From Sphingosinicella microcystinivorans (lineage in GTDB: Bacteria; Pseudomonadota; Alphaproteobacteria; Sphingomonadales; Sphingomonadaceae), in contig NZ_CP116005.1 of the NCBI RefSeq assembly GCF_027941835.1, positions 3,363,501 through 3,427,500 on the forward strand: a DNA stretch of 64,000 nt, given 5' to 3'. The translations under genes were made by a program, and so were the position numbers. This document shows positions 35,193 to 38,689 of this stretch, piece by piece (the stretch's first letter is position 1; each line of letters begins with the position of its first letter). The notes beneath the pieces were generated by a model, which saw only the letters and a program-made list of their open reading frames with translations, was not told the DNA's origin and did not search any database.

Positions 35193-35981
35193 ATGTCCAT
35201 GTTGCTTCGTGGCGCAATGTCCGCCGTGGTTCTGCTTGCCGCTTCCGCGCCCGCCCTTGCAGGGCCGATCCAGGCGCTGAAGGATTACAATCTCATCGTG
35301 TTCAGCGATACGACCCTGCAGTCGCAGGTGGAGGGCGCCGTCTATGTGGACGGCAACTACAATGCCGGTTCCGTGCAGGTCGCGAGCAAGGGCACCAACG
35401 CGCAGGGCGCAAGCCTCGTCGTGACGGGCGACGTCACCAACAATCCCAAGGTGAAGACCGGCAACGCCTATGTGGGCGGAACGTCGCAGCGTATTGATTT
35501 TCAGGGCGGCGGCGGAACCCAGAAGGCGCTGGCCGATGTGCCCGGCGGGCTTCTGAACCACGCGGATTTCGTCAGACTCTCGTCAGACCTTTCCCTGCTC
35601 GACGCCGGCATCTCCTACGACCGCTACAGCCCGGGCGACCATATGAACGGTTTCGTCATCGCGCCGGGGCTTCCGGACGAGAACGGCGTTTCGGTGATCG
35701 CCTTGTCTGCGGACTTTTTCCCCAACACGGGCAAGATCCGTTTCGCGGCCGGTGCCGACACGCTCGACACGATCATCATCAACGTCGCCGGCGCCACCAT
35801 AAATTTCCGCGGCTGGCAGGCCGCGGGCGTGGAGCTTGCCGACAATATCATCTGGAACTTCTTCGAGGCCACCGAGGTCAATTTCCTCGAACAGAGCTGG
35901 GGCACCGTCCTTGCGCCCAATGCGCGCGTGCAGACGAATTCGCAGATGAGCGGCAGCATCGTGGCCCTGTCCTCCGCCTGA
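35193..35981 (+). CDS. choice-of-anchor A family exported protein, truncated by IS21 insertion
   Basis: This is the 5' part of a PEP-CTERM protein gene. It has a signal peptide (about 1-24, cleaved near ALA-GPI), then a choice-of-anchor A domain (about 28-260) typified by YNLIVFSDTTLQSQVEGAVY, VDGNYNAGS, ADNIIWNFFEATEVNF and WGTVLAPNARVQTN. It now stops after 262 residues at TGA 35979-35981, which is the first triplet of the inserted element. The lost end (38510-38689) carries the sorting signal. The product may still be exported but should not be anchored or processed by an exosortase/archaeosortase-like system. ATG 35199 is an alternative start. Confidence 0.9.
   Translation: MSMLLRGAMSAVVLLAASAPALAGPIQALKDYNLIVFSDTTLQSQVEGAVYVDGNYNAGSVQVASKGTNAQGASLVVTGDVTNNPKVKTGNAYVGGTSQRIDFQGGGGTQKALADVPGGLLNHADFVRLSSDLSLLDAGISYDRYSPGDHMNGFVIAPGLPDENGVSVIALSADFFPNTGKIRFAAGADTLDTIIINVAGATINFRGWQAAGVELADNIIWNFFEATEVNFLEQSWGTVLAPNARVQTNSQMSGSIVALSSA
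35971..35978. repeat. target site duplication, left copy
   Basis: CCTCCGCC directly precedes the first base of the insertion element and is repeated exactly at 38502-38509 after its last base. An 8-bp duplication is within the range known for IS21-family elements. Removing the element and one copy restores a continuous reading frame. Confidence 0.92.
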
Positions 35982-35982
35982 G

Positions 35983-36039
35983 GATCAGCGTGCAATAGGC
36001 ACCCCCTTCGTGGGGTGATCGGCGTGCAAAAAGGACCCC
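35983..36039 (+). repeat. IS21 left-end terminal repeats L1 and L2
   Basis: L1 (35983-36006) and L2 (36017-36039) are direct near-copies sharing GATC(A/G)GCGTGCAA and a following GGCACCCCC or GGACCCC block. They match, inverted, R1 and R2 at the right end. Such repeats are known binding sites for the IstA transposase. Confidence 0.8.
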
Positions 36040-36055
36040 TTCATCCCGGGGATTT

Positions 36056-36067
36056 AGTCGGCCGACT
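36056..36067. repeat. 12-bp palindrome in the IS21 leader
   Basis: AGTCGGCCGACT is a perfect 12-bp palindrome between the left terminal repeats and the istA start. It is placed where an operator or promoter-associated site could control transposase expression. The function is not established. Confidence 0.4.
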
Positions 36068-36093
36068 GGTTTTGATCAGTTGGCGAGAACGGG

Positions 36094-37608
36094 ATGTTGA
36101 TCGTGGAGACAGTGGTTCGGATTCGGCGTGAGCATGCAGCGGGTAAGGCGATCAAGGCGATCGCTCGTGACCTTCGTTTGTCGCGGAAGGTCGTCCGCAA
36201 AGCGATCCGGTCGCCGGAGGCGGCGTTCAACTATCAGCGCAAAGTCCAGCCGCTGCCGCGGATCGGTCCTTATCAGGATCGTCTCGATGCGCTGCTTGAG
36301 GAGAACGAAGGTCGCGGCCGCCGCGATCGGCTACGGATGACGCGTATCCATGACCTGCTGGTGCGCGAGGGGTTCGATGGATCCTATGATGCGGTGCGCC
36401 GCTATGCGGCGCGCTGGCGTGCTGCGCGGCGGAAGGATGCTGGCGAAGGCGCACCGGCGTTCATCCCGATGACCTTCCAGCCGGGTGAGGCCTACCAGTT
36501 CGACTGGAGCCACGAGGATGTGGAGATCGCCGGCAAGCCGATGCGGGTGAAGGTGGCGCATATGCGTCTCTGCGACTCGCGCGCACCCTATGTCCGAGCC
36601 TATCCGCGCGAGGGCCAGGAGATGCTGTTCGATGCCCATGCCCGGGCGTTCGCGTTCTTCGGCGGTGTGCCGCGACGCGGTATCTACGATAATATGAAGA
36701 CGGCGGTGACGGCCGTGTTCACCGGCAAGGAGCGTGTGTTCAACCGCCGCTTCCTGATCATGACCGATCATTACATGGTCGAGCCGACCGCCTGCTCGCC
36801 GGCGGCGGGATGGGAGAAGGGCCAGGTCGAGCAGCAGGTCCAGACGATCCGAGGCCGCTTCTTCCAGCCGCGACTCCGGTTCGCCAGCCTGGCCGAGCTC
36901 AACGGGTGGCTGGAGGCCGAGTGCCGGCGCTGGGCCGAGCATCATGCCCATCCCGAACGCGGGGATATTACCGTCGCCGAGGCGCTGGATATGGAGCGAC
37001 CGGCCCTGCAGCCGATCCTGGCACCGTTCGACGGCTTCCATGAGAGCGAGCATGCCGTCACCGGCACCTGCCTCATCAGCTTCGATCGCAACCGCTACTC
37101 GGTCATGTCGACGGCCGCACGCCGGACCGTTCAGGTGCGCTCCTATGCCGATCGCATCGTCATACGCTGCGGCGATGCGATCGTCGGGGAGCATGAGCGC
37201 CACTTCGGTCGGAACCGCACGATATACGATCCCTGGCATTATCTGCCGGTCCTCGCGCACAAGCCCGGCGCGCTGCGTAACGGCGCACCGTTCCAGGACT
37301 GGGATCTGCCGCCCGCCCTGCACCGATTACGGCGAAGGCTCGGCACCGGGGACGAGGCCGATCGCAGGTTCGTGCGGGTCCTCTCGGCGGTGCTCACCGA
37401 TGGCCTGGAGCCGGTAGAGGCTGCCGTGCGCGAAGCGTTGGCGAACGGAACGGCCAGCGACGAGCTGATCCTCAACATCCTCTCCCGGCGCCGCGAGCCG
37501 GCGACACCCCACAGCATCGTCACTTCGGAAGACCGGATGCTGCAGCATCCTCCGCTCGCCGACTGTGCCCGCTATGATCTGCTGCGAGGCTATGATGCAG
37601 CGGCATGA
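36094..37608 (+). CDS. istA: IS21 family transposase IstA
   Basis: The 504-residue DDE transposase has an N-terminal helix-turn-helix ([20 protein letters not shown]). Catalytic residues are seen as Asp137 (QFDWSH), Asp199 (IYDNMKTAV) and Glu246 (KGQVEQQVQ). The C-terminal part has the Mu-type beta-barrel ([15 protein letters not shown]). It is full length with no stop or frameshift, so probably active. Its 3' end overlaps the istB start by 17 nt. Confidence 0.96.
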
Positions 37609-38323
37609 TATGATCGACACGATGCGCGGCCTCGGACTCAAGGGCATGGCGGCGGCGTTCGACGAGGCGGTCACCACCGGCCTCCAGCGCAAGCGCACCA
37701 CCATGGAGATACTGACCGACCTGCTCCGTGCTGAGGCGACCCACCGGGATGCAGCCTCCATCCGCTATCGGATGACGGCTGCGAGGCTGCCCGTGGTGAA
37801 GGACCTGGAGCGGTTCAGCTTCGAGGGCACACCGATCAATGAGGAGATGATCCGCTCCCTTCACGATGGCTCCTTCCTCCCGCCTCGCCGCAATATCGTG
37901 CTGGTCGGCGGCACGGGGACAGGCAAGACCCACCTCGCCATCGCGATCACCGCCAATGTCGTGCGAAGGGGCGCTCGCGCCCGCTACTTCAACACCGTCG
38001 ATCTGGTGACACGCCTCGAAGAGGAGACCCGGATCGGCAAAGGCGGGACCCTGGCGGCGCAGCTGTCGCGGCTCGACCTGATCGTGCTCGACGAGCTCGG
38101 TTATCTGCCGTTCGCCCGCTCGGGAGGGCAGTTGCTGTTCCACCTCATCAGCAAGCTTTATGAGCGGACCAGCGTCATCATCACCACGAACCTCGCCTTC
38201 GGCGAATGGCCGACCGTGTTCGGCGATCCCAAGATGACCACGGCGCTGCTCGACCGCGTCACCCACCACTGCGATATCGTCGAGACGGGCAACGACAGCT
38301 GGCGCTTCAAAAACCGCAGCTGA
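37592..38323 (+). CDS. istB: IS21 family helper ATPase IstB
   Basis: The 243-residue AAA+ protein assists IstA in target selection, as DnaC/DnaA-like ATPases do. Walker A is GGTGTGKT (106-113), Walker [15 protein letters not shown], and sensor 1 VIITTNLAF. Two adjacent ATG codons (37592 and 37595) lie inside the end of istA. The GAGG at 37586-37589 favours the second, but the difference is one residue. The gene is intact. Confidence 0.96.
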
Positions 38324-38449
38324 CAGCCACCTTCGGCGCCTTCAAAAATCTATCTTGCGCTGCGCGCGCCTCCGGTCGGGCTACGCCCGCCCTCCGCCGC
38401 ACGCAGCGCAAGGCCATCTTCAACAAACCAGCATCATATTATCCGAAAA

Positions 38450-38493
38450 GGGGGTCCCTCTTCGACGCCGATCGGGGGTCCCTTTTGAACGCC
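38450..38493 (-). repeat. IS21 right-end terminal repeats R1 and R2
   Basis: Read inward on the minus strand, R1 (38493-38474) and R2 (38473-38450) share GGCGT-N2-AA-N-AGGGACCCCC with each other and with L1 and L2. The spacer between istB and these repeats (38324-38449) shows no gene. Confidence 0.8.
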
Positions 38494-38501
38494 GTTTGAC
38501 A

Positions 38502-38509
38502 CCTCCGCC
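38502..38509. repeat. target site duplication, right copy
   Basis: This is an exact copy of CCTCCGCC at 35971-35978, directly after the last base (A, 38501) of the IS21 element. Confidence 0.92.
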
Positions 38510-38689
38510 ATTCGCGGGCAGCTGCGCGCGCCGACCTATGCAGGCAATTTCGCCTTCCCCGAACCGGTCTTGCCTGAGCCCGGACCGGGCACCGACATTC
38601 CCGAGCCCGCGACGCTCGGCCTTGTCGCCGCGGGCCTCGTCCTCCTCGCGTGGCGCCGCCGCGCCGTGAAAAACGGCGGCGCGGATTAA
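38502..38689 (+). pseudogene. severed PEP-CTERM tail of the choice-of-anchor A gene
   Basis: This fragment continues the frame of the gene broken at 35978. After the duplicated bases it encodes 59 more residues: GQLRAPTYAGNFAFPEPV, a Pro/Glu/Gly linker, then the sorting signal IPEPATLGLVAAGLVLLAW followed by RRRAVKNGGAD and TAA at 38687. PEP motif, hydrophobic helix and basic tail are the complete PEP-CTERM triad. It has no start of its own and should be silent. The joined protein would be about 321 residues. Confidence 0.92.

What the first reader, a model, noticed from the sequence alone, without database searches (positions are those of the whole stretch)
35193..38689. IS21 element severs the PEP-CTERM sorting signal from an exported protein and supplies the stop codon
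The element (35979-38501) sits between identical copies of CCTCCGCC. Joining 35978 to 38510 restores one frame of about 321 residues ending in IPEPATLGLVAAGLVLLAW plus a basic tail. The first triplet of the element is TGA in frame, so the host protein now stops cleanly at 262 residues without its anchor. The protein could be released rather than sorted, a loss or change of function. Intact istA/istB and a perfect duplication suggest recent movement.
Basis: partly seen in the sequence, partly recalled or inferred. Interest (0 to 1): 0.75.

Follow-up and report, generated by a model that had tools for sequence, protein, structure and literature searches.

The report
IS21 cuts anchor; hidden deletion site
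A jumping DNA element has landed inside a bacterial surface-protein gene and cut off its membrane-sorting tail, which is ordinary, but the same kind of element seems to carry a hidden third end at which neighbouring DNA is repeatedly deleted.

Summary
Observation confirmed. A 2523-bp IS21 element (35979-38501) with an exact 8-bp duplication interrupts a choice-of-anchor A / PEP-CTERM gene; its first triplet is an in-frame TGA and the flanks rejoin into 321 codons. Three of three close relatives keep the tail, and exosortase A is present. This is an ordinary IS knock-out. It also removes the last 9-15 positions of the domain model, so release of a working protein is not assured.

Following the element gave something less ordinary. 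Element position 2026 (window 38004, inside istB) is a recurrent breakpoint. The host genome holds eight 498-bp remnants that start exactly there, end at the true right end, and have unrelated flanks and no target duplication; ten more were found in other Sphingomonadales. Two comparisons show deletions ending at this base: two plasmids identical over 5.7 kb, and a plasmid lacking 6 kb of backbone. The site starts with TG, has end-like repeats and ranks 1-5 of 4568 internal positions in resemblance to the two ends. I read it as a cryptic left end used by IstA for one-sided deletions, extending known ISPve1 behaviour. No cleavage has been assayed.

The parts
35193..35978 (+). 5' part of the interrupted gene: N-terminal export signal (by eye) plus choice-of-anchor A (TIGR04215 / PF20597) domain, 262 codons
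   Evidence: intact relatives
35971..35978 (+). left copy of the 8-bp target duplication CCTCCGCC
35979..38501 (+). complete IS21-family element, 2523 bp, 5'-TG...CA-3'
35979..36042 (+). left end with two ACCC-type repeats; its first triplet TGA is the new stop codon of the host gene
36094..37608 (+). istA, IS21 transposase, 504 aa
   Evidence: NF033546
37595..38323 (+). istB, helper ATPase, 242 aa
   Evidence: NF038214
38004..38051 (+). proposed cryptic left end inside istB (element position 2026): TG, end-like repeats, GATCGGC at offset 29-35 as in the right end (offsets counted by hand)
   Evidence: breakpoint of 18 remnants
38004..38501 (+). 498-bp unit that recurs as a solitary remnant (8 further copies in this genome, 10 sites elsewhere)
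38450..38501 (-). right end with two repeats (GGGACCCCC, 24 bp apart, counted by hand)
38502..38509 (+). right copy of the 8-bp target duplication
38510..38689 (+). severed 3' part of the gene, 59 codons plus stop: end of the domain, linker, PEP-CTERM, basic tail; preceded in frame by 7 codons without a start codon
38594..38662 (+). orphaned PEP-CTERM motif (PF07589, 32.8 bits, cut-off 20.7)
   Evidence: C1:3402094-3402162; TIGR02595

Best explanation
(a) Shown: an IS21-family insertion truncates a choice-of-anchor A, PEP-CTERM gene, removing the sorting signal and the end of the domain. Inferred: the insertion is recent, anchoring is lost, and function probably is too. (b) Shown: copies of this element are found cut back to the same base, position 2026 (window 38004), leaving a 498-bp right-hand remnant with other DNA directly joined on the left and no target duplication. 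Inferred mechanism: position 2026 is a cryptic left end. IstA, paired with a true end, cleaves there and joins that 3' end to a target lying further left on the same molecule. This deletes everything between, including the element's own 1-2025 and its transposase gene, so the element inactivates itself while eroding its 5' neighbourhood.
For: (a). (b) In the host genome one search lists 15 partial copies with a right-hand part at 99% identity or more. Six border a nested second IS, one is joined to another part of the element, and the other eight all start at 2026 (8 of 8). Elsewhere at 94% identity or more, 3 of 3 genome copies with an intact right end, a truncated left side and no contig edge start there (L152-L154), and 4 of 5 if copies with an altered right end are added (L155 yes; G112, 22-2501, no). 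So do all 5 left-truncated plasmid copies examined that are not split by another IS (L143, L144, L147, L162, L163), and two at 84-85% identity (L148, L150). The 18 copies with an intact right end share no flanks; the longest flush direct repeat is 0 bp in 17 and 1 bp in one. L150 and L164 are 100% identical over 2235 + 3490 bp and differ by a deletion whose right edge is 2026. In pSES220 the backbone shared with pSWIT01 and pBAR3 stops at the remnant, and the next 6 kb of it was not found there. None of the 44 matches listed in the host genome ends at 2025, where the reciprocal product would. Left-hand genes next to four remnants look broken (methylase, KatG-like peroxidase, esterase, TrbI). 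The site ranks 1, 4, 4 and 5 of 4568 internal positions for resemblance to both ends at four window lengths. Published: IS21 ends are two direct repeats about 23 bp apart and IstA can join two right ends in vitro (PMC10122671, passages); ISPve1 makes unidirectional deletions on its 5' side (PMC3281130, passages).
Against: No cleavage at 2026 has been assayed. The resemblance is modest (z 3.3-4.1) and mainly to the right end (rank 2-4), not the left (rank 152-904); neighbouring positions 2024 and 2029 score about as well. Two more distant relatives (L093, L094) also score high at this site but no remnants of theirs were seen. Only two of the 18 junctions have an informative comparison; no empty-site comparison was obtained for the eight host copies. 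In relatives of 84-86% identity other breakpoints occur (L149 at 1082; L164 and L165 at 936). In the Paracoccus study the deletions were not seen with other IS21 members, even a 99% identical isoform, so such deletions are not a general IS21 trait.
Confidence: 0.72

Rival explanations
1. The 498-bp unit is a miniature element (MITE-like) that transposes with IstA/IstB supplied in trans, using 2026 as its left end.
For: It has TG...CA ends and several copies at unrelated sites; seven of the eight in the host genome are 99.8-100% identical to the element, the eighth (L076) 99.6% over a slightly longer alignment.
Against: No target duplication in 18 of 18, whereas 8 of 17 full copies keep one. 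L150 against L164 shows deletion in place from a longer copy. The L148 flank shows lost backbone.
Confidence: 0.17
2. Deletions end at 2026 for a reason unrelated to the element's own ends, such as a host nuclease, replication fork stall, an IS excision enhancer (IEE) or homologous exchange between copies.
For: IEE-promoted partial IS deletions are described for IS629 (PMC9330008, passage). Flank exchange between full copies is likely in this genome: L060-left/L059-right and L059-left/L055-right share 6 and 8 bp.
Against: Exact single-base recurrence with only 0-2 bp of homology (19 junctions) and the end-like sequence point to transposase cleavage. Reciprocal exchange does not raise the number of remnants. 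I did not search for IEE.
Confidence: 0.15
3. For the window insertion: the truncated protein is folded, exported and released, a change rather than a loss of function.
For: 262 of 321 residues and most of the domain remain, with a clean stop.
Against: The last 9-15 domain-model positions are also lost. No expression data.
Confidence: 0.3
4. Assembly artefact.
For: The host contig starts inside a copy of this element (L072), so repeats limited the assembly; no second genome with this insertion was seen.
Against: Exact 8-bp duplication and in-frame rejoin. The 2026 breakpoint recurs in independent records, several titled complete plasmid sequences.
Confidence: 0.04

Closest known systems
ISPve1 (IS21 family, Paracoccus versutus; PMC3281130, passages seen)
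   Same: Similar length (2503 bp against 2523), 8-bp duplications, an alphaproteobacterial host, and unidirectional deletions on the 5' side of the element (0.5-4.5 kb), more frequent than simple insertions in one trap plasmid (16% against 7% of clones).
   Different: The passages describe deletions accompanying insertion of the element; here the deletion edge lies inside istB and destroys the element. I did not compare the sequences.
IS21 (IS)2-dimer intramolecular transposition (PMC9330008, passages seen)
   Same: Deletion in cis from an element end.
   Different: The edge here is internal; I did not look specifically for dimers, and none stood out among the copies mapped.
Characterised IS21 ends of IS5376 (PMC10122671 and PMC11208146, passages seen)
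   Same: Two direct repeats per end, terminal CA, IstA/IstB.
   Different: The passages mention no internal third end; 5-bp duplications there, 6-9 bp here.
Choice-of-anchor A / PEP-CTERM proteins of the XrtA system
   Same: TIGR04215 and PF20597 domain plus PEP-CTERM in three Sphingosinicella relatives.
   Different: In this genome the tail is severed by the IS.

Membership tests
IS21 family | IstA (DDE transposase) and IstB (helper ATPase) genes in tandem | tested here: met
   NF033546 298.8 bits (cut-off 160) and NF038214 267 bits (cut-off 200)
IS21 family | TG...CA termini with two direct repeats per end | tested here: met
   read by eye
IS21 family | short target duplication | tested here: met
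   6-9 bp in 8 of 17 full copies
PEP-CTERM / exosortase A substrate (gene before insertion) | C-terminal PEP-CTERM, hydrophobic stretch, basic tail | tested here: met
   (joined frame), (TIGR02595 23.7 bits, cut-off 16)
PEP-CTERM / exosortase A substrate (gene before insertion) | cognate exosortase A in the same genome | tested here: met
   TIGR03109 327.9 bits (cut-off 208), with XrtA-system amidotransferase and glycosyltransferase genes beside it
PEP-CTERM / exosortase A substrate (present allele) | sorting signal in the translated product | tested here: not met
   in-frame TGA at 35979
MITE / miniature transposon (498-bp remnants) | flanking target duplications | tested here: not met
   0 of 18 with a flush repeat of 2 bp or more
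MITE / miniature transposon (498-bp remnants) | end sequences at both termini | tested here: inconclusive
   true right end; left end resembles the ends (rank 1-5 of 4568)
IS adjacent deletion | one fixed edge at an element end, other edge variable, no duplication | tested here: inconclusive
   fixed edge, variable far edge and no duplication are met; the fixed edge is an internal site and is not shown to act as an end
IS adjacent deletion | dependence on transposase | not testable with these tools
   needs an assay

The most novel reading that the evidence does not exclude
A clade of IS21 elements in Sphingomonadales carries a third, internal transposon end inside the istB coding sequence. 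IstA uses it, perhaps about as often as the true left end, to delete DNA on the element's 5' side, inactivating the element in the act. This leaves fixed-edge solo remnants across chromosomes and plasmids and acts as a built-in, self-limiting genome-erosion device.
Probability: 0.45. Interest if true: 0.62.

Novelty: new variant of a known kind. Interest (0 to 1): 0.45.

Why it matters
The gene disruption itself is routine. The recurrent breakpoint offers a candidate natural third IS21 end, directly testable with the published reconstituted IstA/IstB system. It would explain solitary IS21 right ends without duplications, suggest a mechanism for one-sided deletions like those of ISPve1, and show how an element can limit its own copy number while reshaping sphingomonad chromosomes and plasmids.

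Tried and rejected
Clean insertion of the 498-bp unit was tested by rejoining flanks at the eight host-genome sites and printing seven of them. The one very long frame with both sides coding (L079, 865 codons) proved to be an integrase running into the leader of a methylase gene, so it is no empty site. Flank exchange between copies was tested by cross-matching left and right flanks: two cross pairs among full copies, none for the remnants. Plasmid searches for contiguous empty sites of L143, L144 and L147 showed none in the 15 rows listed each; only L148 was informative. The idea that distant relatives lack the cryptic end was only partly borne out: the homologous site ranks low in L096-L099 and L101, but high in L093 and L094 and fairly high in L095. 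Breakpoints in copies of 80% identity or less (686 in L103; 1890 in L151 and G291:C7) are not at 2026.

Rows dropped before the counts: copies at contig edges (L104, L107, both G412 copies, G197:C2, G404:C32), L100 (internal gap), and plasmid copies L145 and L146 (split by another IS21-family element). L147 and H132 are the same site and count once. Searches scored only two candidates per genome and one search did not list all its matches; one search scored 40 of 200 candidates; one search listed 60 of 1611 records with the best place of each, and not every second place was examined. All counts of remnants are therefore lower bounds. misread the duplication of L068 and one search missed its right flank, because that copy has a 1-bp gap near its end; searches show 8 bp. 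Seven paper searches bear on IS21 ends or deletions; I saw titles and abstract beginnings, none of which names an internal IS21 end, and passages of four papers.
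Full report
The sequence claim holds. The element at 35979-38501 lies between two copies of CCTCCGCC, and joining 35978 to 38510 restores a 321-codon frame ending in a PEP-CTERM tail. The element's first triplet is an in-frame TGA, so translation now stops after 262 residues. istA and istB are open and meet the curated IS21 models. The severed tail has only seven in-frame codons ahead of it in the element and duplication, with no start codon (read).

The gene is a choice-of-anchor A family protein (TIGR04215, 122.9 bits; PF20597, 136.3 bits). 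Its three closest relatives, in records titled Sphingosinicella (L009, L010, L011; 67-73% identity), have the uninterrupted gene with a PEP-CTERM motif above the Pfam cut-off. Among 59 genomes searched with the protein, 9 matched, the window's own genome included; of the four other genomes of the genus, three matched and G002 did not. I take the host to be a Sphingosinicella-like bacterium; that label is an inference from these records.

The sorting machinery is present. One exosortase gene was found; it matches exosortase A (TIGR03109, 327.9 bits), next to XrtA-system amidotransferase and glycosyltransferase genes. Of 28 PEP-CTERM hits listed, 26 are above the cut-off, and one of these is the orphan tail here. 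The insertion therefore removes one likely client of an apparently complete system.

The idea that the protein is cleanly released needs a caveat. In intact relatives the domain model runs to its end (254-255 of 255; 254 of 254). In the truncated protein it stops at 240 of 255 and 245 of 254. The insertion also takes the end of the adhesive domain, so loss of function is a plain alternative.

The element is a high-copy resident. The host genome holds 17 full copies at 99.96-100% identity. Eight of 17 keep a 6-9 bp duplication: the window copy (8), L055 (8), L058 (8), L061 (7), L062 (8), L066 (6), L067 (9) and L068 (8). Nine have none of 4 bp or more. Two cross-matches between flanks of different copies suggest recombination among them (about 0.2 matches of 6 bp or more expected by chance).

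Partial copies gave the surprise. One search lists 15 partial copies at 99% identity or more that carry the right-hand part; one of them (L072) is cut by the contig start. Six border a second IS of about 1265 bp nested in the element, and one (L073) is joined to another part of the element. The remaining eight (L076-L083) begin at element position 2026 and end at 2523, 498 bp long. None of the 44 listed matches ends at 2025 (which scored 40 of 200 candidates).

The same edge occurs elsewhere. In 396 genomes of the order (two candidates scored per genome), three copies at 94% identity or more have an intact right end, a truncated left side and no contig edge, and all three start at 2026 (L152-L154). 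A fourth, L155, starts there but has an altered right end. A fifth copy, in G112, spans 22-2501 and lacks both tips. Of the eight plasmid records at 95% or more, three show a remnant as best place (L143, L144, L147), three a full copy, and two a copy split by another IS (L145, L146). Second places in two of these records gave L162 and L163. Two copies at 84-85% identity, L148 and L150, start there too. The 18 copies with an intact right end share no flanks, and none has a flush direct repeat of 2 bp or more. Homology to the missing upstream sequence is 0-2 bp at 19 junctions.

Two comparisons show what happened. Plasmid pSAMIE_3 (L150) and plasmid p2 of Rhizorhabdus dicambivorans (L164) are 100% identical over 2235 bp on the left and 3490 bp on the right. 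L164 has an element copy spanning 936-2523, while L150 lacks the part from 1260 to 2025. In pSES220 (L148) the left flank matches four other plasmids at 96.9-97.7% up to the remnant. Two of them, pSWIT01 and pBAR3, continue with further genes, while pSES220 matches only the first 1004 of 7004 bases of that stretch (two other sister plasmids also lack part of it, matching 77%). Both comparisons fit deletions with one edge fixed at 2026.

The flanks of the host's own remnants agree without proving it. Frames running into the remnant on the left match a DNA methylase, an esterase, TrbI and a peroxidase that I recognise as KatG-like, and these look incomplete at the junction. For the peroxidase I read three frames on the other side and saw no continuation.

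Position 2026 looks like an end. It begins TG, has end-like repeats at spacings close to those of the right end, and shares GATCGGC with the right end at the same offset, 29-35 (sequences, counted by hand). Scored against both ends it ranks 1, 4, 4 and 5 among 4568 internal positions for four window lengths; against the right end alone it ranks 2-4, against the left end only 152-904. The 14 remnant or close-relative sequences printed all carry GGGACCC at the second repeat; the eight full relatives of 75-80% identity do not. Two of those eight, L093 and L094, still rank high at the homologous site, so the link is suggestive only.

Published work fits an IstA-driven reading. IS21 ends consist of two direct repeats about 23 bp apart, IstA needs both, and it can join two right ends in vitro (PMC10122671, passages). 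ISPve1, an IS21-family element of Paracoccus with 8-bp duplications, frequently makes unidirectional deletions next to its 5' end, although a 99% identical isoform did not (PMC3281130, passages; also PMC9330008, passages). The internal edge inside istB is what this report adds. Seven paper searches listed no title or abstract beginning that describes it, in a library that lacks most subscription journals.

The element it pointed to has a recurrent internal deletion edge that is best explained as a cryptic transposon end. That step is inferred from junctions and resemblance, not from an assay.

Noticed in passing
L069, L070, L071, L072, L074, L075 (host genome): A second IS of about 1265 bp with ends CCGGAGGAAGATCA / TGATCTTCC lies inside copies of this IS21 at several positions (about 659, 1086, 1217, 1489, 1504); mosaics such as 1-662 with 1504-2523 suggest recombination between its copies.
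   Followed up: partly
L077/L078 and L080/L081 (host genome): Two pairs of 498-bp remnants lie only 9.5 kb and 7.7 kb apart in the same orientation.
   Followed up: no
L072:1-1296: The single contig of the host genome begins inside a copy of this element at position 2514, so the circle was probably broken at an IS copy during assembly.
   Followed up: no
L151:2865-3493 and G291:C7:15229-15857: Two right-end remnants of a 77-78% identical IS21 relative both start near position 1890, possibly another shared or recurrent edge.
   Followed up: no
L145 and L146: In two Sphingobium yanoikuyae plasmids a copy of this element is split near 1471-1476 by another IS21-family element, an IS21-into-IS21 insertion.
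   Followed up: no
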